A DNA stretch of 64,000 bases from Caviibacterium pharyngocola (lineage in GTDB: Bacteria > Pseudomonadota > Gammaproteobacteria > Enterobacterales > Pasteurellaceae), in NCBI RefSeq assembly GCF_002795405.1, contig NZ_PHGZ01000006.1, positions 1-64,000 of the forward strand, written 5' to 3'. Shown here piece by piece: positions 25,981 through 59,717 of this stretch. A program made the translations under genes and the position numbers. The notes below the pieces were generated by a model, which saw only the letters and a list, made by a program, of their open reading frames with translations, did no database searches and had not been told where the DNA came from. Numbering within the stretch: the first letter of the stretch is position 1; each line of letters opens with the position of its first letter.

Positions 25981-26090
25981 TCTAAAAGTGCGGTGATTTT
26001 TTTCGTTTTTTTAGTTTTAATTTATTTGGGGGAATTTTTATCTTCGGCGAATGCGAAAGATAAACAAACCTAATTCTTAAGAGAAAATCT

Positions 26091-27101
26091 ATGTTTCAAT
26101 TTCTTCTCAAGCGTATTGCGATGATTATTCCGACGTTTCTCGGCATTACGCTTTTGACCTTTGCTTTGATCCACTTGATTCCCGGCGATCCGATTGAGAT
26201 TCGGATGGGAGAGCGCGGTTTAAATCCGGAAATGCACGAGCAAATGAAAAAACAACTGGGCTTGGATCAACCCTTGTATATTCAATACGGCGACTATGTC
26301 AAAGGCATTGCGCAAGGTAATTTGGGCAATTCCTTTAAAAATAACGAGCCGGTGGTCGATGAATTTTTATCGCTGTTTCCCGCGACGATCGAATTATCCA
26401 TATTCGCCGTTTTATTTGCGGTGATTATCGGGATCCCCGCCGGTATTCTGGCGGCGGTGAAACGCGGATCGGTATTTGATCATACGGTAATGGCAGTGTC
26501 GCTGACGGGCTATTCGATGCCGATTTTCTGGTGGGGCTTGTTATTAATGTTGGTGATGTCCGTGCAGCTGGATATTACGCCGGTTTCCGGACGAATCGGC
26601 GCGGAATTTTGGATTGATAACGTCACCGGCTTTATGTTAATCGACAGCTGGCTGTCAGGCGAGCCGGGTGCGTTTAAATCCGCCGTATCCCATTTAATTT
26701 TACCGTCCGTGGTGTTGGGGACGATTCCCTTGGCGGTGATTTCGCGGATGACGCGTTCTTCAATGTTGGAAGTGTTAGGCGAAGATTATATTCGTACCGC
26801 GCGCGCCAAAGGATTAACGCCGATGCGCGTGATTATCGTACACGCCTTGCGTAATGCGCTTATTCCGGTGGTCACGGTGATCGGTTTGATTATCGGACAA
26901 TTATTATCCGGCGCAATTTTAACCGAAACTATTTTTGCTTGGCCGGGCATCGGTAAATGGGTGATCGAGGCGATTCGCGCTAGAGATTATCCGGTGGTGC
27001 AGGGGGCTATTTTAATTATCGCCACGATTATTATTTTGGTGAATTTATTGGTCGATTTAATGTATGGCGTGTTGAACCCGCGCATTCGCCATAAAAAATA
27101 A
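26091..27101 (+). CDS. dppB: dipeptide ABC transporter permease DppB
   Basis: 336 residues (E. coli 339), six transmembrane helices. N-terminal FLLKRIAMIIPTFLGIT and IHLIPGDPIEI are typical of DppB/OppB permeases. The coupling-helix EAA motif lies near RTARAKGLTPMRVIIVHALRN (about 238-258 region), which contacts the ATPases DppD and DppF. Forms a heterodimeric channel with DppC. Begins about 155 bases after dppA, downstream of the attenuator hairpin, and is 12 bases from dppC. Confidence 0.96.
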   Translation: MFQFLLKRIAMIIPTFLGITLLTFALIHLIPGDPIEIRMGERGLNPEMHEQMKKQLGLDQPLYIQYGDYVKGIAQGNLGNSFKNNEPVVDEFLSLFPATIELSIFAVLFAVIIGIPAGILAAVKRGSVFDHTVMAVSLTGYSMPIFWWGLLLMLVMSVQLDITPVSGRIGAEFWIDNVTGFMLIDSWLSGEPGAFKSAVSHLILPSVVLGTIPLAVISRMTRSSMLEVLGEDYIRTARAKGLTPMRVIIVHALRNALIPVVTVIGLIIGQLLSGAILTETIFAWPGIGKWVIEAIRARDYPVVQGAILIIATIIILVNLLVDLMYGVLNPRIRHKK

Positions 27102-27113
27102 CGGGAAAATTTT

Positions 27114-28013
27114 ATGTCAGAATCTGTGATAACTTCAATACAAGCGCCGGCCCCGCAAACGCCGTTGCGCGAATTTTGGACGAATTTTACGCGCAATAAA
27201 GGTGCGTTGATCGGGTTGATTTATATCGCCGCCGTTTTATTTATCAGTCTGTTTGCCGAGTGGGTAGCTCCGCATAATCCGATCGAACAGGCGCGCGATG
27301 CCTTATTAATGCCGCCGGCGTGGTTGGAAGGCGGAAGTTGGAATTATATGTTAGGTACCGACGATGTGGGGCGGGATATTTTGTCGCGCTTAATTCACGG
27401 CGCACGCTTATCTTTATTTATCGGCTTATTAGTCGTGTCGCTTTCTTTCGTATTGGGCGTGTCTTTAGGGCTTATCGCCGGTTATGTCGGCGGAGTGGTC
27501 GATATCGCGATTATGCGCGTGATTGATATTATGATGGCAATGCCGAGTTTGTTATTGGCGATTGCTATTGTCGCGGTGCTCGGTCCTTCGCTGCTCAACG
27601 CTTCGTTCGCCATAGCCTTAGTTTCTTTGCCGAGTTATGTGCGTTTAACCCGTGCGTCGGTGTTAAACGAAATCAACCGAGATTATGTCACCGCCTCGCG
27701 TGTTGCCGGTGCGGGCGCGTGGCGTTTAATGCTGATCGTGATTTTACCGAACTGTGTTGCACCGTTGATTGTGCAAACCACATTAGGTTTTTCCAATGCG
27801 ATTTTAGATATGGCGGCATTAGGCTTCCTCGGTATCGGTGCGCAACCGCCGACGCCGGAATGGGGCGCAATGTTGGCGGATGCCTTGCAATTCGTACAGC
27901 GTGCGTGGTGGGTGGTCACTTTCCCGGGATTAGCGATTTTGTTGACCGTTTTAGCCTTCAACTTAATGGGCGACGGTTTACGCGACGCTCTTGATCCGAA
28001 ATTAAAACAATAG
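27114..28013 (+). CDS. dppC: dipeptide ABC transporter permease DppC
   Basis: 299 residues (E. coli 300). An N-terminal cytoplasmic tail is followed by six helices. LGTDDVGRDILSRLIHGARLSL (near residue 80-100) is the characteristic OppC/DppC sequence, and the EAA loop contains TASRVAGAGAWRLM. C-terminal PEWGAMLADA and NLMGDGLRDALDP are also family-specific. Starts 12 bases after dppB and ends nine before dppD. Confidence 0.96.
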   Translation: MSESVITSIQAPAPQTPLREFWTNFTRNKGALIGLIYIAAVLFISLFAEWVAPHNPIEQARDALLMPPAWLEGGSWNYMLGTDDVGRDILSRLIHGARLSLFIGLLVVSLSFVLGVSLGLIAGYVGGVVDIAIMRVIDIMMAMPSLLLAIAIVAVLGPSLLNASFAIALVSLPSYVRLTRASVLNEINRDYVTASRVAGAGAWRLMLIVILPNCVAPLIVQTTLGFSNAILDMAALGFLGIGAQPPTPEWGAMLADALQFVQRAWWVVTFPGLAILLTVLAFNLMGDGLRDALDPKLKQ

Positions 28014-28022
28014 GGAGGCGCA

Positions 28023-29012
28023 ATGTCATTACTTAAAATAGAACGCCTTTCCGTCCATTTCGGCGAGGAAAATGCGCCGTTTAAAGCGGTGGATCGCATC
28101 AGTTATCAAATCGACAAAGGCGAAGTGCTCGGTATTGTGGGCGAATCGGGATCGGGTAAATCGGTTAGTTCCCTTGCCGTAATGGGATTAATCGATTATC
28201 CGGGACGGGTCAGTGCCGATACCTTGACCTTCGAAGGTAACGATTTGTTAACCCTTGGAGCGAAAGAAAAACAAAAATTAGTCGGTGCGGAAGTGTCGAT
28301 GATTTTCCAAGATCCGATGACCAGTTTGAATCCGGCTTATACGGTTGGCTTTCAAATTATGGAAGCGTTGAAAGTTCATCAAGGCGGCAGCAAGGCGGAA
28401 CGCCGTAAAAGAGCGGTCGAATTATTGCAAATGGTGGGGATTCCCGATGCCGAATCCCGATTGGCGGTGTATCCGCATCAATTATCCGGCGGAATGAGCC
28501 AGCGGGTGATGATTGCAATGGCGATTGCTTGCAAGCCGAAATTATTGATCGCCGACGAACCGACCACCGCTTTGGACGTGACGATTCAAGCGCAAATCGT
28601 AGATCTCTTGCTGGACTTGCAAAAGAAAGAAAATATGGCGCTGATTTTGATTACTCACGATTTAGCCTTGGTTGCCGAAGCGGCGCACCGTATCATCGTG
28701 ATGTATGCCGGACAAATCGTTGAGGAAGGTTTGGCGGAAGAAATCTTTAATGCGCCGAAACATCCTTATACGCAGGCATTATTGCAATCTTTGCCTGAGT
28801 TTGCCGAAGGAAAATCGCATTTGAAATCCTTGCCGGGCGTCGTACCCGGAAAATATGATCGTTCCGCCGGTTGTTTATTAAATCCGCGCTGTCCTTATGC
28901 CACCGAACATTGCCGCCAAGTCGAACCGCAACTGCGCGCTTTGGACGGGCGCCAAGTGAAATGTCATACCCCGCTTAACGCGCAAGGAGAACCCCTATGT
29001 CCGAGCAATTAA
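28023..29012 (+). CDS. dppD: dipeptide ABC transporter ATPase DppD
   Basis: 329 residues (E. coli 327). Walker A GESGSGKS (about 40-47), Q-loop [11 protein letters not shown], signature LSGGMSQRV (about 155-163), Walker [13 protein letters not shown] and H-loop ITHDLAL. The C-terminal oligopeptide-transport domain has the Cys-rich [17 protein letters not shown], which in DppD relatives binds a 4Fe-4S cluster. GGGAGGC precedes the start. It overlaps dppF by 16 bases, so translation is coupled and DppD-DppF stoichiometry is likely fixed. Confidence 0.96.
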
Positions 29013-29977
29013 AGCCCGCACCGCTGTTAAGTGCGGTCAATTTAAAAAAACATTATCCGGTTAAAAAAGGCTTGTTTTCGCCGACGAAAACGGTAAAAGC
29101 CTTAGACGGCGTGTCTTTTTGCTTGGAAAAAGGTAAAACCTTAGCCGTGGTGGGCGAATCCGGTTGCGGTAAATCCACGCTCGGACGTTTGCTTACAATG
29201 ATTGAAACGCCGACGGACGGCGAACTGTTTTATAACGGACAAAACTTTTTAGAAAACGATCACCAGACGCGAAAATTACGCCGGCAAAAAATTCAAATCG
29301 TGTTCCAAAACCCCTACGCTTCGCTTAATCCGCGTAAAAAAATCGGCACGATTTTGGAAGAACCTTTGCTGATTAACACCGCACTTTCCGCCTCGGAACG
29401 TAAAGAACGCGTGCTGGCGATGATGGAAAAAGTCGGTTTGCGTGCCGAATTTTATGATCGCTACCCTCATATGTTTTCCGGCGGTCAACGTCAACGGATC
29501 GCGATTGCACGCGGGTTAATGCTTAATCCGGATATTGTCGTCGCCGACGAACCGGTTTCTGCCTTAGACGTTTCGGTTCGCGCGCAAGTGTTGAATTTGA
29601 TGATGGACTTGCAACAAGAATTAGGGTTGTCTTATATCTTTATTTCGCACGATTTATCCGTGGTGGAGCATATTTCCGACGAGGTAATGGTGATGTATTT
29701 GGGACGTTGCGTCGAACAGGGCAATACCGAACAAATATTCAACAATCCGCGTCATCCTTATACCCAAGCGCTCCTTTCCGCCACACCGCGACTTTCACCG
29801 CATTTGCGTCGCGAGCGAATTAAGCTGGAAGGCGAATTACCGAGCCCGTTAAACCCGCCGAAAGGCTGTGCTTTTCACGCCCGTTGCCGATTCGCTACGG
29901 CGCGCTGTTCGCAAGAGCAACCGGAGTTAAAAACCTATCCCGACGGCACGAAAATCGCTTGTTTTATGGTGGAATAA
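28997..29977 (+). CDS. dppF: dipeptide ABC transporter ATPase DppF
   Basis: 326 residues (E. coli 334). Walker A GESGCGKS (about 54-61), Q-loop [12 protein letters not shown], signature [15 protein letters not shown], Walker [13 protein letters not shown] and H-loop ISHDLSV. The C-terminal [15 protein letters not shown] repeats the Cys-rich element of DppD. Starts within the end of dppD; AAGGAG serves as ribosome-binding site. Last gene of dppABCDF. Uptake signals occur at 29029 and 29378. Confidence 0.96.
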
Positions 29978-30025
29978 AGAAAACCGACGAAGGTTTGGCG
30001 ATTATGCTTCAGTTTGTATCCCACT

Positions 30026-30055
30026 TTTCCCTCTCCCACAAGGGGAGAAGGGAAA
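30026..30055. repeat. palindromic element between dppF and mcrC
   Basis: TTTCCCTCTCCC (30026-30037) faces GGGGAGAAGGGAAA (30042-30055), a near-perfect stem of about 12 bp with a 4-base loop. There is no T-run. The CCCTCTCCC/GGGGAG core resembles small intergenic palindromes found repeatedly in gammaproteobacterial genomes, but copy number cannot be seen here. Confidence 0.5.
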
Positions 30056-30137
30056 TGATGATAAACAGCCATATAGGTTTGTCATCGGTCTTAAACATAT
30101 TGAGATATACGCTTTTTGCCGTCATATTTTTATTCGG

Positions 30138-31457
30138 TTAATCCGCTTGAATATAGGATCGAACGCTGTTTTGCAGAAATCGCTCGCTTTCTTTTATTTT
30201 TTCCACGAAGGTGAAATAATCGGAGGCGTTTTGCGGAATTGAAAAGGCGATTTTAAAAATATTGCCGCCATATCCGTTCAATTTGCCTTGTGAAAAACAT
30301 TCGGAATCGGTTTTTGTCGGATAAATCACTGCGCCGATATCTGCTTTTTGAATATACATATAGCTGATAAGTTGGTGAATATCTTCCCGATGAATTTCGT
30401 TTTGTCGCTCTAAGCGCTTGTATTTCGCATCAAGAATAATATTTTTATACCAGAAATCAGGAAAGCGTTTATAATTTTTCGAATGTTCAAATAAATATAA
30501 CGCATTTTTGCCGGTTTTATTTTTCGGATGATTAAATCCAAGCGATTGTAATAGGGTATTTAAATACTCTTCCCAAAGCCAGGCGCCGTCAAATAATATT
30601 CCGTAGATTTTATCTTTTTCTTTTCCATATTTTATTTCTTCGTAATTTAATATTTGTTTACATAATTTTTGTAACGGAACATAATCCGAAAAATAAGTGT
30701 GAGAAATGGGTTGATTATTTTTATTTAAAACGGATCTTTTTTCATTCTTACAATAAGTCGGTGTGACGGATTCGATTTTTCGAACCGCTTCGATAATCTC
30801 TCTATTTGCAGTCAAAAGCTGTCTGCCGATAGCCTGACGTTTAATTTGTTCGATAGTATGCCGAATAAGTTGAGTGACATTATTATCGTAACAATATTCT
30901 TTTAATGAATAAGCGATTTTGCCTTGAAAAGGGATATTGCGTTTAATATGCGTCGAAAGATCAATTTTTCCTTTGAGTTGATTATTATTGTAATTTCGGT
31001 ATTGATATTGTTTAAATAAACCTTGTTTTAAGGCTTTAATTAACATTGCGGGAAAGAGATAAAGTAAGAAATCAAAAATATTTTCCTTATTCGAATCGAA
31101 TTTAAGATCCAGCATATTAATGCAGAATACTTTTTGTAACATATAATGCAAAAAATAATCTTCTTGATCCGAAGGCGTAAAACGCGAATGAATACTTAAT
31201 AAGCTTTGATTAACGCCGATAAATCCCATTACATTATATGTCGTTAATTTATAGTGAGAAGATTGGTGCGCAAGATCAAATATGATTTGCTGATGAATAT
31301 CATCATTATGTCGGTTTAATACTTCGGGAAAAATCAATAAATTCGGGTTATTTTCGATTAATTGCTCGATAGGCAAGGTGAGCCGTTGAAGAGCGGCATA
31401 ATAGCGTTCTTCACAAATTAAATTGCCTTGATTATTATCCGTGGTTATTAACATCAT
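30138..31457 (-). CDS. mcrC: McrC-like subunit of a type IV restriction system
   Basis: 439 residues. McrC binds the McrB ring and supplies the nuclease that cuts modified DNA. The McrC hallmark GKIDLSTHIKRNIPFQG is at about 163-179. The C-terminal PD-(D/E)xK core is visible: Glu296/297, PD at 333-334 and LDAKYK with Asp343 and Lys345. All nuclease residues are present, so it is likely active. The start shares one base with the mcrB stop (TAATG), so it is translationally coupled. The gene is strikingly AT-rich compared with dppF and tkt, indicating horizontal origin. It converges on dppF. Confidence 0.88.
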   Translation of the reverse strand: MMLITTDNNQGNLICEERYYAALQRLTLPIEQLIENNPNLLIFPEVLNRHNDDIHQQIIFDLAHQSSHYKLTTYNVMGFIGVNQSLLSIHSRFTPSDQEDYFLHYMLQKVFCINMLDLKFDSNKENIFDFLLYLFPAMLIKALKQGLFKQYQYRNYNNNQLKGKIDLSTHIKRNIPFQGKIAYSLKEYCYDNNVTQLIRHTIEQIKRQAIGRQLLTANREIIEAVRKIESVTPTYCKNEKRSVLNKNNQPISHTYFSDYVPLQKLCKQILNYEEIKYGKEKDKIYGILFDGAWLWEEYLNTLLQSLGFNHPKNKTGKNALYLFEHSKNYKRFPDFWYKNIILDAKYKRLERQNEIHREDIHQLISYMYIQKADIGAVIYPTKTDSECFSQGKLNGYGGNIFKIAFSIPQNASDYFTFVEKIKESERFLQNSVRSYIQAD

Positions 31458-32923
31458 TAACTAAAATATATATTTTCCAGTTCGGTTAAACGTTCTTCCG
31501 TATCCGGATAGCCTCGTAAATATTCGAATAAAATACCGCGAATATGATTTGCCCAAAGTTTTTGAAAATCGCCTTGATATTGTTCTAATTTTAAAAAATA
31601 TGCCGGCCCGATATGATAAGAGGAATTCAGCCCCGGAAGATTTTCGATTTCTCGGTTAAGTGCGGTCATTTTCTTCTCCGCTTCTTCTTTCCACGGATCA
31701 ATATGACCGTTCCACATTGAAATTTGATCTTCCGCTTTGATTTCTTTCCACGCAAAGCGACGGCGCATTGCAAAATCAATATTTTCGACGCTGCGATCAA
31801 TGTCATTCATCGTGCCGATAATATAGACGTTTTCCGGAATATAAAACCAGCCCGCCCCCAAGGTTTCGTCAAAAACCGTATCTTTATTTTGAATTGATGC
31901 ATATTGGGTTTTCACTTTTCCCGTTTTACCGCGATAACCGGGATCAATGGAATAAAACAATTCGCCGAATATTTTGGAAATTTCACCTCGGTTAATTTCA
32001 TCAATGACAAAAATATAGGGATAATTCTCAGCTTTTTGGGAAATCGCTTTTTTACAAAATTCCTTAAATATACCATTTTTTAAGCTAAAGCCGACTTGTC
32101 CGTTTATTTCTTCCGCTCTTAATCCTTCGATAAAATCGGTGTAATCGTAAGAAGGATGAAATTGTACGAAAGTATAATGTTGGTCGAATATCGCTTTTTC
32201 TTCTTCGCTTAATGTATTTTCGTCCGTTTTGTTAAAGAATAAGTTAATAGCGATTTGTTTTGCTAAAAAAGTTTTTCCGGTTCCCGGTGCGCCGGTTAAA
32301 ATAAGGTTTTTATTTTGTTTTAGTAATTCGGTATATTCCACAATATTTTCTCCTAATGCCGAAAGGCTATTTTTCTCTGTAATCACGGCGCAATATAATT
32401 GAAAGAGTTCTTGACGAAAATATGCGATCATTTCGGTATATTCCAGTTCGTCAATGTGATTGTTAATAACATCAATTACTTTTCCGAATAAATAAAAATC
32501 ATCATATTTTAATTCGTGTAGATCTTTTTCATCTTTGTCATATAAAAAATGGAATCCTTTTTGTTTCAGAACGGTTGCAATCGGGTCATTTTTAATTCGT
32601 AGGTAAGCATTTACAAAAGGGCGAATATATTCGACGGGCGACTTATCATTTTTAAAGGGAACATATTGTGCACTAAAAGCAAGACCGTATCTTATTTTAT
32701 CTTCATCTAAATAAATATGATATTGTATTTCCGTTCCGCCGCCTTCATTAATTGCCCAATTTCGATCTTCGTTATTATATTTAAATAATATATTTTGAGC
32801 AGGAGCTCGTTTTAGGTTGAGTAATTCTTTTCGTGCATAGCGGAAGGTATCAATAAAATCCGCTAAATCGGAATTAATTTTATCAATGAGCGATTTTAAA
32901 TTCGTAATAGGAATAGTTGGCAT
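31457..32923 (-). CDS. mcrB: McrB-like AAA+ GTPase of a type IV restriction system
   Basis: 488 residues. The AAA+ core has Walker A GAPGTGKT (211-218), Walker B in VIDEINRGE (306-314), the McrB motif TMNDIDRS (371-378; E. coli MNTADRS, needed for GTP use) and FAMRRRF (384-390) with the arginine finger. Residues 1-190 form an N-terminal domain that should recognise modified DNA. It is not recognisably the E. coli McrB DNA-binding domain, so the target modification is unknown. Downstream mcrC overlaps by one base. The sequence is AT-rich, yet an uptake signal (31658) lies in the coding sequence, suggesting exchange among Pasteurellaceae by natural transformation. No methyltransferase is adjacent, as expected for type IV. 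Confidence 0.9.
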   Translation of the reverse strand: MPTIPITNLKSLIDKINSDLADFIDTFRYARKELLNLKRAPAQNILFKYNNEDRNWAINEGGGTEIQYHIYLDEDKIRYGLAFSAQYVPFKNDKSPVEYIRPFVNAYLRIKNDPIATVLKQKGFHFLYDKDEKDLHELKYDDFYLFGKVIDVINNHIDELEYTEMIAYFRQELFQLYCAVITEKNSLSALGENIVEYTELLKQNKNLILTGAPGTGKTFLAKQIAINLFFNKTDENTLSEEEKAIFDQHYTFVQFHPSYDYTDFIEGLRAEEINGQVGFSLKNGIFKEFCKKAISQKAENYPYIFVIDEINRGEISKIFGELFYSIDPGYRGKTGKVKTQYASIQNKDTVFDETLGAGWFYIPENVYIIGTMNDIDRSVENIDFAMRRRFAWKEIKAEDQISMWNGHIDPWKEEAEKKMTALNREIENLPGLNSSYHIGPAYFLKLEQYQGDFQKLWANHIRGILFEYLRGYPDTEERLTELENIYFS

Positions 32924-32989
32924 AGCATATCTTTTTTAGTGGAATCTTATCGTTACTATAGCGTTAACGTAATGCGAGTACAATATGCG

Positions 32990-33023
32990 ATAAAATAAAA
33001 AAGCACGCCGTTTCAGCGTGCTT
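32990..33023 (-). terminator. tkt terminator
   Basis: AAGCACGC (33001-33008) and GCGTGCTT (33016-33023) form an 8-bp stem with a 7-base loop. On the minus strand it is followed by TTTTATTTT. An uptake signal (33029-33039) lies between it and the tkt stop. Confidence 0.85.
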
Positions 33024-33045
33024 TCGTTAAAAGTGCGGTAGAAAT

Positions 33046-35052
33046 TTAGAGAATTTCTTTCGCTTTGGCAACGACGTTTTCAACGGTGAAGCCGAATAGT
33101 TTGAATAGCTGATCCGCCGGTGCGGATTCGCCGAAGGTGTTCATTGCAACGATACGACCTTGAGTACCGACGTATTTGTACCAGAAATCCGCGATGCCCG
33201 CTTCAATGGCGACGCGTTTGGTGACGTTGCTCGGTAACACACTTTCGCGATAAGCGGCGTCTTGTTTATCAAACACGTTGGTGCTCGGCATTGATACGAC
33301 GCGAACTTTGGTGCCTTGTGCATCCAATTCTTCCGCAGCTTTCATCGCTAATTCCACTTCGGAACCGCTGGCGATAAGGATAAGATCCGGACAATCGCCT
33401 TTTTCGCAACAATCGCGCAAAATATATCCGCCGCGTGCCGCATTAGCAAGTTGCTCGGAAGTGCGGTTCATTTGTGCGAGATTTTGACGCGTGAAGATTA
33501 ATGCGCTTGGACCGTCTTTACGTTCCACCGCCGCTTTCCACGCAATCGCGGATTCCACTTGGTCGCAAGGACGCCAAGTTTCTAAGTTTGGAATTAAACG
33601 CAAGGCGGAAGTTTGTTCGACCGGTTGGTGGGTCGGACCGTCCTCGCCCAAGCCGATAGAATCGTGGGTATAAACGAACAAGCTGCGTTGTTTCATTAAC
33701 GCCGCCATACGCACTGCGTTGTGGGCATATTCGTAGAACATTAAGAAAGTGGCGCCGTAAGGAATAAAGCCGCCGTGCAAGGCGATACCGTTCATAATGG
33801 CGGACATTCCGAATTCGCGCACGCCGTAGTTAATATAGTTACCGTCGGTGTTGGTGGTGGCACGAATCGGTTTGGAACCTGACCATAAAGTGAGGTTGGA
33901 ACCGGCTAAGTCGGCGGAACCGCCCAAAAATTCCGGTAAAAGATGTGCGTAGGCTTCGATAGCGTTTTGTGACGCTTTACGGCTGGCAATATTTGCCGGA
34001 TTCGCTTGTAATTTTTCAATGAAAGCTTGGCTTTCTTGCGCCCAGTTTGCCGGCAATTCGCCGTTTAAACGACGAACCAATTCGGCGCTTAATTCCGGAT
34101 AAGCTTTGGCGTAGGCGGCGAATTTATCGTTCCAATTTTGTTCTTCCGCTTGACCTTTTTCTTTTGCGCTCCATTGGGCATAAATGTCCGCCGGAATTTC
34201 AAAGGGTGCGTAATCCCAGTTCAGCGCTTTGCGGGTTAAGGCGATTTCTTCGTCACCGAGCGGTGCGCCGTGGCAATCGTGAGAATTGGATTTGTTCGGC
34301 GAACCGAAACCGATAATGGTTTTGCAAATAATTAAGGTCGGTTTATCTTTTTCCGCTTGCGCTTGTTTTACCGCTTGTTCGATTTGTTCCGGATTGTGTC
34401 CGTCGATTGCCGGAATTACTTGCCAACCGTAAGCTTCGAAGCGTTTTTGCGTATCGTCGGTGAACCAGCCGTCAACGTGACCATCGATAGAAATATTGTT
34501 GTCGTCATAAAATGCGATTAATTTACCTAAACCGAGCGTACCTGCTAATGAACAAGCCTCGTGCGAAACGCCTTCCATTAAGCAACCGTCGCCTAAAAAG
34601 ACATAAGTGTGGTGGTCGATAATCTCGTGACCTTCACGGTTAAATTGCGCCGCAAGCGTTTTTTCCGCAATCGCCATCCCCACCGCATTGGTGATACCTT
34701 GACCTAACGGGCCGGTGGTAGTTTCTACGCCCGGTGCATAGCCGTATTCAGGGTGTCCCGGTGTTTTGGAATGAAGTTGACGGAATTGTTTAAGATCGTC
34801 GATAGAAAGATCGTAACCGGTTAAATGGAGTAGGCTGTAAATGAGCATTGAGCCGTGACCGTTAGAAAGAATGAATCTGTCGCGGTTCGCCCATTTCGGG
34901 TTATTCGGGTTATGTTTTAAAAAGTCACGCCATAACACTTCCGCAATATCCGCCATTCCCATAGGTGCGCCCGGGTGACCGGATTTCGCTTTTTGTACTG
35001 CATCCATACTTAAAAAACGGATCGCGTTAGCAAGTTCTCTACGAGTTGCCAT
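33046..35052 (-). CDS. tkt: transketolase
   Basis: 668 residues (E. coli TktA 663). Transketolase is thiamine-diphosphate dependent and moves two-carbon units in the non-oxidative pentose phosphate pathway. [13 protein letters not shown] (about 26-38) and the ThDP/Mg motif GDGCLMEG (about 154-161) are in the N-terminal domain. The pyrimidine domain has [14 protein letters not shown] and the C-terminal domain completes the fold. It is transcribed alone, ending in a strong terminator. The 200-base leader on the 35053-35270 side contains GGGAGA/TCTCCC inverted repeats and no recognisable TPP riboswitch. It provides sugar-phosphate links to deoB-derived ribose-5-phosphate. Confidence 0.98.
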
Positions 35053-35270
35053 TTTATTCTCCTGCTTATCAAATGTTTCAACACACAGCGCTTCACAAGG
35101 GCTAGGTTCTATGTGTTACTCCGAATCGGGAGAGTTTATACTTCTCCCAATAAAATCGTAAAAATAGTTCGGTTGACTATTCTACCTTATTTTTCTTGAA
35201 GAAAACCGAATTAATTCGATTAGTTTTTTCTTATTGGCGCTAAATGTGATGTAGTTCACTAAATCGGATA

Positions 35271-35303
35271 TAAAAAAAGATCGAATGAGAATTCGATCTT
35301 TTC
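35271..35303 (-). terminator. rpoH terminator
   Basis: AGATCGAAT (35278-35286) and ATTCGATCT (35291-35299) form a 9-bp stem with a 4-base loop; on the minus strand it ends in a run of seven T. Confidence 0.85.
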
Positions 35304-35319
35304 TTCAATGAAAAATCAG

Positions 35320-36165
35320 TTAAAAACTGACCGCACTTTTTAATTTTTTCAATGCGCTGGTTTCAAGCTGACGCACGCGTTCCGCCGAGATATTGTATTT
35401 CGCGGCAAGATCTTGCAAGGTCGCTTTCTTTTCGTCCAACCAACGGGCTTTGATAATATCTTGGCTGCGAGCGTCAAGATTTTCCAATGCCACGGCGATT
35501 TGATCGGCGGCTTGGGTTTCGTAATTTTCGTTTTCCAGCTCGGCGGCAAAGTTAGAATGTTTATCTTCCAAATACAATGCCGGTGCATAAGCGTCATCAT
35601 CGTCATCGTTCGATAAATCGAACCCGACGTCCGCGCCGCTCATTCGGCTTTCCATTTCCAACACGTCTTCTCTCGACACACCGAGCTCGTCGGCGACCAT
35701 ATCCACTTCGTTGTCATTAAACCAACCTAAACGCTGTTTCGTCTTACGCAAATTAAAGAATAATTTACGTTGCGCTTTGGTGGTGGCGACTTTTACGATG
35801 CGCCAGTTGCGTAACACATATTCGTGAATTTCCGCTTTGATCCAATGCACCGCAAAGGAAACCAAGCGCACGCCCACTTCCGGATTAAAGCGTTTGACCG
35901 CTTTCATTAAGCCGATATTGCCTTCCTGAATTAAATCCGCTTGCGGTAAACCGTAACCGGAATAACCGCGCGCGACGTGAATGACAAAACGAAGGTGAGA
36001 CAAAATCAATTTTTTTGCCGCCTCAAGATCTTCGTGATAATACAAACGTGTTGCCAATTCCTTTTCTTCCTCCGCCGTTAGCATCGGATATTCGCTCGCC
36101 GCTCGGATATAACCTTCTAAGCTGCCTTGAGGAACCAGCATCATTGTTTGTGTTTCTTTATTCAT
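35320..36165 (-). CDS. rpoH: RNA polymerase heat-shock sigma factor RpoH
   Basis: 281 residues (E. coli sigma-32, 284). It directs transcription of chaperone and protease genes on heat shock. Region 2 has [28 protein letters not shown] (about 55-82). The RpoH-box QRKLFFNLR (about 132-140) is diagnostic and separates it from RpoD (present elsewhere in the window). Region 4 ends with [18 protein letters not shown]. An acidic run ([10 protein letters not shown]) lies between regions 3 and 4. It follows the DUF2322 gene by 131 bases, where a perfect 21-bp palindrome is found. An uptake signal overlaps the stop (35330-35340). Confidence 0.97.
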
Positions 36166-36276
36166 TCTATTCCTTCTTAGTAATCACCTTTTGGGTTTAG
36201 TTATAACATAATTAACGAGAATATCAATCGTTATAAGCGATGAATCTCACGATTTATGATAGATTAGACCATAAAT

Positions 36277-36297
36277 ATCTTAAGAAGTTCTTAAGAT
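36277..36297. promoter_or_regulatory. perfect 21-bp palindrome upstream of rpoH
   Basis: ATCTTAAGAA, one central base, then TTCTTAAGAT. On the minus strand it begins at the DUF2322 stop codon and ends about 110 bases before rpoH. No T-run follows, so a protein-binding operator or an RNA processing hairpin is more likely than a terminator. Confidence 0.5.
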
Positions 36298-36611
36298 TAA
36301 CGGTGAATCGGTACAAGTTGATATTCTAAACCTTGCTCGATAACTTGCAACAATAAATCGATATTCGGGTGCTTCGCCGGATTTTCGCGCGCGTCTTGGG
36401 TATGCTCGGCGAATAGTTGCAAGCCTCTTTCCGCACGAGTGCGGTCGAATTTTCCGTTAAATTCCTGCGCCAGCGCATTGTAAACGCGCAAGGATCCTAA
36501 TTTGCCTTGAATCGCCGGAATGTGATGAATGATTTTATCACCTTTGATGACGTTTAAGCCGCTTAAATGATCGATCGTCGGTAAGGTTTCTAAAATCGTT
36601 TTGAAATCCAT
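36297..36611 (-). CDS. DUF2322 family protein
   Basis: 104 residues with no signal peptide or membrane helix, so probably cytosolic. Recognisable DUF2322 features are IDHLSGLNVI near residue 13, IPAIQGKLGSLRVYNAL (about 32-48) and FAEHTQDARENPAKHPNIDLL near the C-terminus. No function is known for the family. It lies 29 bases after murB and before rpoH on the same strand, so it is probably co-transcribed with murB and perhaps narQ. The GKLGSLRVYNAL block is well conserved, hinting at a binding surface, but I do not assign a role. Confidence 0.8.
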   Translation of the reverse strand: MDFKTILETLPTIDHLSGLNVIKGDKIIHHIPAIQGKLGSLRVYNALAQEFNGKFDRTRAERGLQLFAEHTQDARENPAKHPNIDLLLQVIEQGLEYQLVPIHR

Positions 36612-56003: not shown

Positions 56004-57872
56004 ATGGAGCAAAACCCACAATCTCAGTTGAAATTGTTAATTGCACAGGGCAAGGAGCAAGGCTATTTAACGTATGCCGAAGTCAATGATCATCTGCCGG
56101 AAGAACTTGTCGATGCGGATCAGATCGAAGACATTATTCAGATGATTAATGATATGGGTATTCAGGTTCTGGAAACGGCGCCCGATGCCGATGATTTAAT
56201 GCTGAACGAAAACATCGCCGATGAAGATGCCGTTGAAGAAGCGACGCAAGTATTATCCAGCGTGGAAGCAGAGCTAGGACGTACGACGGATCCGGTGCGG
56301 ATGTATATGCGTGAAATGGGGAGCGTAGAGTTATTGACCCGTGAAGGCGAGATCGACATCGCAAAACGTATCGAAGAAGGCATTAACGAAGTACAAAGTG
56401 CGGTGGCGGCATATCCGGAATCCATTACTTATTTGCTTGAGCAATATGCACTGGTCGAAGAAGGCGGTATGCGTTTGGCGGATTTGATTACCGGCTTTGT
56501 CGATCCGAATGCCGTGGAGGAAGCGGATATTCCGGAAATTGACGCCTCTTTGTCGGATGAGGATGAAGAAAGCACCGAAGTCAGCGATGCCGAATTGGAT
56601 GAAGAAGACGAAGAAGAAAGCGAAGAAGAAAGCGGCGGCGATGACAGCGATTCCGATAATACTATCGATCCCGAAGTCGCGCGCGAAAAATTCGCCGAAT
56701 TGAAATTACAGCATCAAAAAACCTTGGACGCGATCTTAAAACACGGTCGTAGCAAAAAACAAGCGAAAGACCAAATCCAACTGTTAGCGGATATTTTCAC
56801 CCAATTCCGTTTGGTACCGAAACAATTCGATACTTTGGTTATCTCAATGCGTGAAATGATGAAACGCGTGCGTCAACAAGAACGCCATATCCAAAAAATG
56901 GTAGTGGATAACGCCAAAATGCCGAAAGCGGCGTTCCAAAAAGATTTTATCGGTCACGAAACTACGGATGTTTGGTTGGTTAAAGCCTTAACTTCCGGCA
57001 AAGCGTGGGCGGATAAATTGACCCAATACGAAGCACCGATTCGTCAATCTATCGAAAATTTAATTCAAATCGAGCAAGATACCGGTTTATCTGTGCAACA
57101 AATTCGTGATATTTGCGAACGCGTGTCGCAAGGCGAATTGAAAGCGCGTCGCGCGAAGAAAGAAATGGTCGAAGCAAACTTGCGTTTGGTGATCTCCATT
57201 GCGAAAAAATATACTAACCGCGGCTTACAATTCTTAGATCTGATTCAAGAAGGTAATATCGGCTTAATGAAAGCGGTGGATAAATTCGAATATCGTCGCG
57301 GCTATAAGTTCTCGACTTATGCGACGTGGTGGATTCGCCAAGCTATTACGCGCTCCATCGCCGACCAAGCGCGTACCATTCGTATTCCGGTGCATATGAT
57401 TGAAACGATTAACAAACTGAATCGTATTTCACGTCAAATGCTGCAAGAAATGGGACGCGAAGCTTCGCCGGAAGAATTGGCGGAAAGAATGGGTATGCCG
57501 GAAGACAAAATCCGTAAAGTGCTTAAAATCGCCAAAGAACCGATCTCAATGGAAACACCGATCGGTGATGACGATGATTCGCATTTAGGCGATTTTATCG
57601 AAGACAGCACCTTGGAACTTCCGTTAGATTCGGCAACGGCGCAAAGCTTAAAAGCAGCGACGCACGAAGTGCTCGAAGGCTTAACGCCGCGCGAAGCGAA
57701 AGTATTGCGGATGCGTTTCGGTATCGATATGAACACGGATCACACCTTGGAAGAAGTGGGCAAACAATTTGATGTAACGCGCGAACGTATTCGTCAAATC
57801 GAAGCCAAAGCGCTGCGCAAATTACGCCACCCAAGCCGTTCCGAAACTCTAAGAAGTTTCTTGGACGAATAA
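56004..57872 (+). CDS. rpoD: RNA polymerase primary sigma factor RpoD
   Basis: 622 residues (E. coli 613). Region 1.1 is at about 1-85, then an unusually acidic non-conserved part near 180-230 ([12 protein letters not shown]). Region 2 has [29 protein letters not shown] and [11 protein letters not shown]. Region 4 ends with [22 protein letters not shown]. Directs most growth-phase transcription. It follows dnaG by 74 bases, and a terminator follows. An uptake signal is at 56395. Confidence 0.99.
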
Positions 57873-57889
57873 GCCGTATTAACCGAATA

Positions 57890-57920
57890 AATAAGCCTGA
57901 TAAGAAATCGGGCTTATTTG
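57890..57920 (+). terminator. rpoD terminator
   Basis: AATAAGCCTGA (57890-57900) and TCGGGCTTATT (57908-57918) form an 11-bp stem with one T-G pair, 17 bases after the rpoD stop. The T-tract is short. Confidence 0.75.
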
Positions 57921-57951
57921 TTCAAAATTTATTCGGACGGGCTCCTTATCC

Positions 57952-57980
57952 TAGACTTTAAGCCTGTATTTCACTATAAT
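57952..57980 (+). promoter_or_regulatory. promoter of the tRNA gene
   Basis: TAGACT (57952-57957) and a perfect TATAAT (57975-57980) are separated by 17 bases. A start near 57987 gives a short 5' leader to the tRNA at 57995. Confidence 0.65.
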
Positions 57981-57994
57981 TCCGCAATCTTACC

Positions 57995-58071
57995 GCCCCC
58001 ATAGCTCAGTCGGTCAGAGCAGTCGACTCATAATCGATTGGTCACAGGTTCAAGTCCTGTTGGGGGCACCA
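57995..58071 (+). tRNA. tRNA with CAU anticodon, best fit tRNA-Ile2
   Basis: 77 bases folding as a standard tRNA: acceptor GCCCCCA/TGGGGGC, D arm GCTC/GAGC, anticodon stem GTCGA/TCGAT with loop CTCATAA (anticodon 58029-58031), T arm ACAGG/CCTGT, encoded CCA. CAU occurs in elongator Met, initiator Met and Ile2. The anticodon-variable region GACTCATAATCG and TTGGTC resembles enteric ileX. C4-G69 and C5-G68, reported TilS determinants for lysidine formation, are present. It is not the initiator because position 1 pairs normally. I favour Ile2 over elongator Met. Confidence 0.95.
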
Positions 58072-58079
58072 TATAGCTA

Positions 58080-58118
58080 AACAAAGCCTTTCGTAACTAA
58101 ACTGAAGGCTTTGTTTTT
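58080..58118 (+). terminator. tRNA terminator
   Basis: AACAAAGCCTT (58080-58090) pairs with AAGGCTTTGTT (58105-58115), followed by TTT. Strong 11-bp stem directly behind the tRNA. Confidence 0.85.
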
Positions 58119-58239
58119 ATCAGTAAAATCAATGAGTTCTATTCTTTTTCTTAACGTAGCTTAACGCGATATAGCGGCGCTAATCGTATTTTTTTGTAAC
58201 CAATGATGTAACTACAAACAAAGGCTTGTTATTATTTAG

Positions 58240-58383
58240 CTTTTGTGGTTACGTAAATTTTTAGATGCCGAAATCAAAAAACTAAGCCACAAGGAAAAAA
58301 TGTATTCCTTACTGGCAGCAATGGGCTAAGATCAGGTGAATGATTTTTTAGGTGATATCATAAAGCGATGTGTGGAATTATAG
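58240..58383 (+). pseudogene. relic of an unidentified gene in the tRNA islet
   Basis: A reading frame from 58240 gives about 29 helical, charged residues (including KFLDAEIKKLSHKEKMYSLL), then a TAA at 58327-58329, then 17 more residues (DQVNDFLGDIIKRCVEL) to a stop at 58381. The two halves join naturally if the TAA is read through, which suggests a decayed C-terminal gene piece. No start codon is seen. The rest of 58119-58557 is AT-rich and shows only a candidate promoter. I do not recognise the family. Confidence 0.45.
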
Positions 58384-58427
58384 TTAAATAGTTAATGTTA
58401 GGTGTTATCAGTAAATTAAACATTTTA

Positions 58428-58456
58428 TTGATTTTTTATATCGTACCATATACACT
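58428..58456 (+). promoter_or_regulatory. candidate promoter for the tRNA-islet genes
   Basis: TTGATT (58428-58433) and TACACT (58451-58456) have a 17-base spacer, about 100 bases before the small ORF with a strong ribosome-binding site. Confidence 0.4.
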
Positions 58457-58557
58457 AAATCTATAAATACAACTTTAGTAATTATGTAAAAGGTTTAACT
58501 CATATCTAAAACAGTATGAGTTTTGTTGACTATAGGTATAGGAAACGGAGGTGCACT

Positions 58558-58737
58558 ATGACATCAGTAGCATTAAGCCTTACATCAGAAAACCGCCTCT
58601 ACCGAGTGTTAAAAGAAAATAAAGATAATTATACGATCGATTCAAAAGGTCAGGTGAATCTAAAACCCGAATACGCCAATGAAAAATTTAAGTCGGTATT
58701 GATTAAGTTAAAGGATGTAAAAGTTCAAGCTAAATAA
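58558..58737 (+). CDS. small unknown protein in the tRNA islet
   Basis: 59 residues from ATG 58558, which has GGAGGTG five bases upstream, one of the strongest ribosome-binding sites in the window. The frame is open 14 codons further but without such a site. The protein is basic and mixed in charge (NRLYRVLKENKDNY near the middle, LIKLKDVKVQAK at the end), with no membrane helix, signal or Cys. I do not recognise a family. Two bases separate it from the membrane-protein gene downstream, which has no ribosome-binding site of its own, so the two are probably coupled. Strongly AT-rich, unlike bamD and rpoD. Confidence 0.65.
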   Translation: MTSVALSLTSENRLYRVLKENKDNYTIDSKGQVNLKPEYANEKFKSVLIKLKDVKVQAK

Positions 58738-58739
58738 AT

Positions 58740-59532
58740 ATGGAATCTTTAAGTATCTTAGTGATTGCAATTACAGGTTTTTTGTATGTGAATTTAAGCT
58801 TAACTACTCGATATAAATTTAAGCGCTCCGAAGATTGGAGCGCTTATTTATATGTAGCAGGTTGGGGTGTCTGTTTTTTCTTCGTCGCTTGGTGCATTAT
58901 TTCATTATTGAGTAGTTTGGGGTGGCTTAGAGAGATCTATAATTTGTTATCTATGAAAATAAACGTTGATAGGATTGTAATGACTTCTAATAACTTAGAA
59001 GAAAAAAAGAACCTATTAAAGCTCGTAGCTATATGCGTTTTAAGTATAATACTGGCATTTCTTGTTGGTATTGGTAACAGAGTATATTATAAACTCTATG
59101 CTGATGGAAAATTAAAATCTTTATCTAAGCTTATTAGTAATAATCCATTTGAATCACTTGTTTTAGAATCCCATATTAGATCCTTTCCTGTGTTGGTAAC
59201 ATTGTCCTCTAATAAAGTTTATGTAGGGATTGTCCCTTCGGCTCCTCTACTTGAAGATGGGCGATATAGAATATATTTCTTTATTACCATTATTGAGTGG
59301 GTATAGAGAATCCGGTACTTTAGGTGTTATCTTTACGACAAACTACTATAATCACTACAATGAGTTCTTATTTGATAGTGCAGAATCGTTAAGTTTAGAT
59401 GACTTTAATATAACCTTTCCTATTTCTGAAATATTAAGTATTTCTTTATTTGATATGGAAACTTACAACAAGTTTCAAAGTAAAATCAGCTCATATTCTA
59501 TTAAACGTTATTTTAGTAAAACTAAAAAATAA
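58740..59532 (+). pseudogene. membrane protein gene broken by one frameshift
   Basis: The first frame (58740-59306) encodes three hydrophobic helices (about residues 1-20, 33-62 and 92-115) and a soluble part reaching NKVYVGIVPSAPLLEDG. It then runs into a poor tail and stops. A second frame (to 59532) continues with DIEYISLLPLLSGYRESG and about 80 more residues. Removing one G from the GGG at 59259-59261 joins both into one frame of about 263 residues. I infer a frameshifted gene, but programmed frameshifting or a sequence error would look the same. The predicted topology is three membrane segments near the N-terminus, then a cytosolic or periplasmic domain. No family recognised. It follows the small ORF by two bases. 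Confidence 0.65.
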
Positions 59533-59672
59533 CTAGAACGATACTCGAAAATAAAAATTACGCCTTAATAAATATTGATCGTTGGATAAATGGAAACATT
59601 GTTTTTTGATATCAAAGACGTTTATCGGCACAAAACATTATAAAACGTATATAGATAAGAAAAAGTGCGGTC

Positions 59673-59717
59673 AAAAAAAGCACCCTAATCGGCATATTGC
59701 CTTTCGGGTGCTTTTTT
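59673..59717. terminator. bidirectional terminator after bamD
   Basis: AAAAAAAGCACCC (59673-59685) pairs with GGGTGCTTTTTT (59706-59717), giving T-runs on both strands. It ends bamD on the minus strand and may end the islet transcript on the plus strand. An uptake signal (59661-59671) is adjacent. Confidence 0.8.

What the first reader, a model, noticed from the sequence alone, without database searches (positions are those of the whole stretch)
30138..32923. McrBC type IV module with a non-standard recognition domain
A complete McrB-McrC pair is inserted as an AT-rich block between dppF and tkt. The McrB N-terminus (residues 1-190) is not recognisably the known E. coli 5-methylcytosine reader, so the target modification is open. 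An uptake signal inside mcrB (31658) suggests spread by competence within the family, which fits a defence gene in a naturally transformable host.
Basis: partly seen in the sequence, partly recalled or inferred. Interest (0 to 1): 0.5.

Follow-up and report, generated by a model that had tools for sequence, protein, structure and literature searches.

The report
Restriction system with an undescribed reader
A bacterium, probably of the Haemophilus family, carries an intact two-gene DNA-cutting defence system of a known type (McrBC), but the part that should recognise foreign DNA belongs to a rare, unnamed protein domain that also occurs on other McrB motors and fused directly to a nuclease-like domain, so what it recognises is open and testable.

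Summary
Genes at 30138-32923 (minus strand) encode an intact McrB (488 aa; Walker A, Walker B, NxxD) and McrC (439 aa; D334, D343, K345 kept), overlapping by one base, in a block of 33.6% GC against 46.0% around it. Residues 1-184 of McrB match no Pfam family and show no sequence similarity to the E. coli 5-methylcytosine reader (DUF3578) by profile comparison. They belong to a small domain family found here on this McrB motor type, on a distant E. coli-like McrB inside a type I restriction operon, and at the front of about 330-aa proteins with a PD-(D/E)XK-like end. Motor and reader histories disagree, so the domain is most likely swapped as a unit. Predicted structures (pLDDT 90-91) resemble DUF1054 best and the E. 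coli reader only moderately (Z 5-6), so a very distant shared fold is possible, not shown. The gene is patchy (full-length in 1 of 140 family genomes). The uptake-signal argument is weak: one signal in the block is no more than background. Best reading: a type IV system with an uncharacterised, probably modified-base, reader. New variant of a known kind.

The parts
31457..32923 (-). mcrB, 488 aa: N-terminal reader-position domain plus AAA+ GTPase motor
32372..32923 (-). N-terminal domain, McrB residues 1-184, undescribed family; W56, G61, G62, E65, Q67, F143, G147 are among 15 residues invariant in 5 sequences; N17, F47, G61, G62, E65, Q67, G147 stay invariant in 9
31460..32329 (-). AAA+ GTPase motor, McrB residues 199-488
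32270..32293 (-). Walker A GAPGTGKT, residues 211-218
31796..31807 (-). NxxD GTPase signature NDID, residues 373-376
   Evidence: motif meaning from PMC11090510
30138..31457 (-). mcrC, 439 aa: McrC with PD-(D/E)XK nuclease
30423..30458 (-). McrC nuclease motif residues 334-345 (D334, D343, K345), invariant in 6 of 6 aligned McrC
31658..31666 (+). uptake signal sequence AAGTGCGGT inside mcrB; background density
32999..33025 (-). terminator-like hairpin between tkt and mcrB
   Evidence: consensus match only (2 such sites found in the stretch, 4.1 expected from shuffles)

Best explanation
This is a type IV (McrBC) restriction module. McrB would assemble into a GTP-driven AAA+ ring, and its N-terminal domain would bind foreign DNA; McrC would join the ring, stimulate GTP hydrolysis and cut. 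The recognition step is done by a domain family with no name in the libraries searched, which evolution moves as a unit between McrB motors and a simple nuclease-like end. Most likely it reads a modified base (or another mark on phage DNA), perhaps by base flipping as the E. coli reader does. Shown: intact motor and nuclease motifs, overlapping genes, the domain family and its several partners. Inferred: GTPase, translocation and cutting (by homology), DNA binding and the kind of target.
For: Motor and nuclease families and residues. Three McrB relatives share the N-domain: L024 E 4e-60, L025 E 5e-39, L001 E 1e-27; the other 12 of 15 N-regions compared show nothing better than E 0.19 (E-values for that small set). 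The motor tells another story: by motor identity L024 is 12th and L025 16th of 16, and nine proteins with unrelated N-regions rank above both; L025 groups with E. coli and G103a (support 0.945). The same domain heads three proteins of about 330 aa with a C-terminal D...ExK pattern (PDDEXK_9 E 8e-5, under its cut-off, in one of the three); McrB-type domains against these: profile E 9.4e-12, 0 of 40 column shuffles reach the score. L087 carries a similar nuclease-like end behind another front. Defence setting, gene names read from the translations: L025 lies inside a type I restriction operon; a lone copy in L089 lies upstream of hsdM-hsdS. In known McrB proteins the N-domain is the DNA reader (PMC3874153, passages; PMC7680126, passages).
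Against: No binding or restriction data. Nothing shows that the target is modified: a related system, LlaJI, binds site-specifically through an N-terminal B3 domain (PMC7680126, passages). The nuclease-like ends of the 330-aa proteins are called from a motif and one sub-threshold hit. L084 looks like the domain with a short other tail, and L088 is the domain alone, so not every copy is joined to a nuclease. The window's own place in the motor tree has support of only 0.193, and the case for swapping rests mainly on L025.
Confidence: 0.7

Rival explanations
1. The N-domain is a very diverged member of the E. coli McrB reader fold (DUF3578, also called ADAM) and reads 5-methylcytosine or a close relative by the same base flip.
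For: Two predicted models, window and L025, match E. coli McrB-N: Z 5.2, 3.8 A over 112 residues, one entry; eleven entries at Z 5.9-6.3, 3.3-3.7 A over 112-118 residues. Same place in the protein.
Against: No sequence signal: profile probability 0.1-1.6% against DUF3578 sets of 11 and 12 sequences and against E. coli alone, and column shuffles do as well in 2 to 33 of 40 trials, while E. coli against the same set gives 96%. Type III secretion chaperones and YbjN score about as high or higher (Z 5-7.5).
Confidence: 0.3
2. The N-domain binds a short unmodified sequence, so this is closer to a site-specific restriction enzyme of the LlaJI sort whose host is protected by a methylase elsewhere.
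For: LlaJI precedent in PMC7680126 (passages); the fused form recalls simple restriction enzymes.
Against: No methylase gene was seen among the ORFs listed for 26000-36500 (read by eye, no methylase search was run); the rest of the genome was not searched for one.
Confidence: 0.12
3. The pair is a decaying or silent remnant.
For: AT-rich, foreign composition; rare in relatives.
Against: Both frames open, catalytic motifs kept, one-base overlap kept.
Confidence: 0.08

Closest known systems
EcoKMcrBC of E. coli K-12
   Same: mcrB-mcrC gene pair, AAA+ GTPase with NxxD, PD-(D/E)XK McrC
   Different: motor 38% identical; N-domain without sequence similarity
McrB of L024 (IMG/VR contig) and L001 (Bacteroidales MAG)
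   Same: same N-domain (49% and 37%); in L024 an McrC follows
   Different: other sources; motor 55% and 64% identical
McrB of L025, inside a type I restriction operon
   Same: same N-domain (38%)
   Different: E. coli-like motor, 34% identical
About 330-aa proteins in L019, L020, L022
   Same: same N-domain
   Different: D...ExK nuclease-like end instead of a motor
DUF1054 (YktB), function unknown to me
   Same: best fold match of both models, Z 9.8 and 10.7 (that 2a8e is a DUF1054 protein is recalled, 3mqz at Z 9.1 and 8.6 is titled so)
   Different: no convincing sequence link: probability 7.6% with 7 rows (0 of 40 shuffles as high), 0.35% with 4 rows (4 of 40)

Membership tests
McrBC type IV restriction | McrB AAA+ GTPase with Walker motifs and Nx(xx)D signature | tested here: met
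   GAPGTGKT, FVIDEINR, MNDIDRS
McrBC type IV restriction | McrC with PD-(D/E)XK nuclease, encoded next to mcrB | tested here: met
   PF10117 E 1.5e-52; D334, D343, K345 invariant in 6 of 6; one-base overlap
McrBC type IV restriction | cleavage depends on modified DNA | not testable with these tools
   needs biochemistry
DUF3578 / ADAM 5-methylcytosine reader (PF12102) | sequence profile match | tested here: not met
   no Pfam hit at E<=10 for the domain alone; profile probability 0.1-1.6%, not above shuffles; E. coli McrB itself matches PF12102 at 1.1e-6
DUF3578 / ADAM 5-methylcytosine reader (PF12102) | McrB-N fold | tested here: inconclusive
   Z 5.2 and 5.9-6.3, tied with unrelated folds
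EVE/YTH, SRA, B3 readers | sequence profile match | tested here: not met
   no Pfam hit at E<=10 for the domain alone
EVE/YTH, SRA, B3 readers | fold | tested here: inconclusive
DUF1054 (PF06335) | fold | tested here: inconclusive
   Z 9.8 over 157 and 10.7 over 156 residues, above all other rows, but Foldseek gave no match at E<=0.001
DUF1054 (PF06335) | sequence profile match | tested here: not met
   no Pfam hit at E<=10; weak profile hint only

The most novel reading that the evidence does not exclude
The N-domain founds a new family of modified-DNA readers, used both by McrBC motors and by single-chain nucleases; together with E. coli McrB-N and DUF1054 it forms one ancient superfamily of base-flipping nucleic-acid readers, which would also give the unknown DUF1054 proteins a biochemical role.
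Probability: 0.2. Interest if true: 0.6.

Novelty: new variant of a known kind. Interest (0 to 1): 0.42.

Why it matters
Type IV systems are a barrier to phages with modified DNA, and each new reader is a lead to a mark that bacteria find worth attacking and a possible reagent for mapping it. Whether E. coli McrB-N, this domain and DUF1054 share one origin is a question that a single crystal structure could answer.

Tried and rejected
Competence spread from the uptake signal: rejected as evidence, density is background. Target-site repeats at the block ends: no shared word of 10 bases, direct or inverted, between the two 300-base flanks compared. Empty-site comparison: not possible. Viral contigs: the protein found none, the five-row N-domain alignment two, a repeat with four rows the same two, the fused-nuclease alignment none. 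Phages: none of 50,697 records with the N-domain at E<=1 or the fused protein at E<=0.01. Plasmids: 2 of 72,556 records with the N-domain at E<=1, 0 with L025's. E. coli genomes: no near match to window 29000-35200. Solved-structure sequence search with the N-domain alignment: none at E<=10. Fold search in viral models: none at E<=0.001. EVE, SRA, YTH and B3 structures did not appear among the 50 rows shown in each, which excludes nothing. DUF3578 in 185 genomes of the class: none, and no control rang, so it was repeated in another phylum (10 of 149); those ten, one Enterococcus protein and E. coli made the comparison set. Papers: searches listed nothing that I could see to describe this domain; an unnamed domain cannot be searched by words, so this says little. 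Rows dropped before counts: L011 (McrB split in two frames), the second McrB of G103 and that of G056 were left out of the motor comparison; L007 has no N-region in its ORF and was left out of the N-region comparison. One of the five AlphaFold runs for the L025 domain was poor (pLDDT 62; the others 89-91).

Full report
What is there. On the minus strand, mcrB (31457-32923) and mcrC (30138-31457) overlap by one base. McrB matches AAA_5 and solved McrB structures from residue 198 on, with Walker A, Walker B and the NxxD signature that marks the branches holding the E. coli system (PMC11090510, section 6 and passages). McrC matches PF10117 and one solved McrC weakly (6ut5_G, E 0.0047); D334, D343 and K345 are invariant in 6 of 6 aligned McrC proteins, E. 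coli included. A terminator-like hairpin stands between tkt and mcrB, a consensus match that shuffles also give.

Foreign look and distribution. The block has 33.6% GC against a mean of 46.0% for windows of its size outside it. Of 140 family genomes, 4 hold any match to McrB and only the window's own matches over the full length; the other 3 match in the motor only. McrC family PF10117 is in 5 of 140, 4 over the cut-off. The neighbourhood is a variable junction: tkt is not found in the sequence downstream of dppF in 28 relatives with 1 kb or more there. So the system is not core, but insertion into a former dppF-tkt junction cannot be shown. One uptake signal in the block, where 2.2 would be expected from the window's density, does not argue for spread by competence.

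The N-domain. Residues 1-184 match nothing in Pfam at E<=10. A search with a two-row alignment found, in 369 genomes of the class, only the own genome and G288; five rows gave the same two. In the phylum of L001, 1 of 395, its own source; in the phylum of L006 (a Streptococcus), 1 of 100. So the family is rare in these samples, as far as such small alignments reach. Its settings: McrB proteins in the window, L001 and L024, an E. coli-like McrB set inside a type I system (L025; gene names read from the translation), three proteins of about 330 aa with a D...ExK end (L019, L020, L022), a protein with a short other tail (L084) and a lone copy upstream of hsdM-hsdS (L088 in L089). Nine sequences keep N17, F47, G61, G62, E65, Q67 and G147 throughout.

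Swapping. By motor identity to the window, L007 (65%), L001 (64%) and L002 (61%) lead; L024 is 12th and L025 16th of 16, though they carry the same N-domain, and L002, L005, L003, L008, L010, the Enterococcus protein, L004, L009 and L006 rank above both with unrelated N-regions. In the tree L025 groups with E. coli and G103a (support 0.945), then with G106 (0.984), while the place of the window itself is poorly supported (0.193). The conclusion of swapping rests on L025 above all.

Is it a known reader? By sequence, no: against 11 DUF3578 sequences, the same with E. coli, and E. coli alone the profile probability is 0.1 to 1.6%, and shuffled columns score as high in 2 to 33 of 40 trials, while the fused-nuclease relatives give 97.4% and no shuffle of 40 reaches the score. 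By fold, perhaps distantly. Models of the window and L025 domains, each from four sequences, have mean pLDDT 91.5 and 90.5. Foldseek gives no match at E<=0.001. The second aligner ranks a DUF1054 protein first for both (Z 9.8 and 10.7; second entry 9.1 and 8.6) and E. coli McrB-N at Z 5.2 (one entry) and 5.9-6.3 (eleven entries), with smaller rmsd (3.3-3.8 A) than most of the secretion chaperones that score alike. Z below 8 may mean only a common arrangement, as the tool warns. The DUF1054 sequence hint (probability 7.6%, 0 of 40 shuffles as high with seven rows; 0.35% and 4 of 40 with four rows; three DUF1054 sequences) is not enough.

Mechanism. For E. coli McrB the N-domain flips the cytosine into a pocket, with Y64 and L68 touching the methyl group (PMC3874153, passages); other McrB N-domains read other things, with a YTH fold for 6mA and a B3 domain for site-specific binding in LlaJI (PMC7680126, passages). 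By position and by its habit of being joined to motors or nuclease-like ends, the domain here is most likely the DNA reader. That its target is a modified base is the likeliest option, not a result. The rest of the machine should work as in E. coli.

Verdict. It is a new variant of a known kind: a McrBC with an undescribed specificity domain. That McrB N-domains vary is known, and a census of nearly 34,000 systems meant to classify them leaves part to a later paper (PMC11090510, section 6), so this kind of novelty is expected even if this member seems unnamed.

Noticed in passing
L089 7831-8409 (G992), same as L088 1501-2079: A lone 192-aa copy of the N-domain, without motor or nuclease, downstream of a RecT-like gene and upstream of hsdM-hsdS of a type I system; could be a partner or a decoy. 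Neighbour names are read from the translations, not from a search.
   Followed up: partly
L025 1511-12124: McrB-McrC set inside a type I restriction operon (hsdM, hsdS, unknown, mcrB, mcrC, hsdR, names read from the translations), with the same reader on an E. coli-like motor.
   Followed up: partly
L087 2314-3558: Phocaeicola plasmid protein with a nuclease-like end similar to that of the fused N-domain proteins (35% identity) behind another front; no Pfam match at E<=0.001, suggesting a modular family of single-chain nucleases.
   Followed up: partly
window 57850-59700: A second AT-rich stretch (the only other 2.8-kb windows under 36% GC), with a tRNA-Met at 57995-58071 and ORFs 58740-59306 and 59230-59532 of unknown kind; may be a small island at a tRNA.
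   Followed up: no
L030 (G103:C1:544023-545003): Another family member's McrC reading frame is reported with one internal TAG, so that system may be inactive.
   Followed up: no
downstream of dppF in L052-L080: What follows dppF differs between most of the relatives looked at, while some close pairs share it (L054 and L055, L079 and L080): a variable chromosomal junction in this family.
   Followed up: partly
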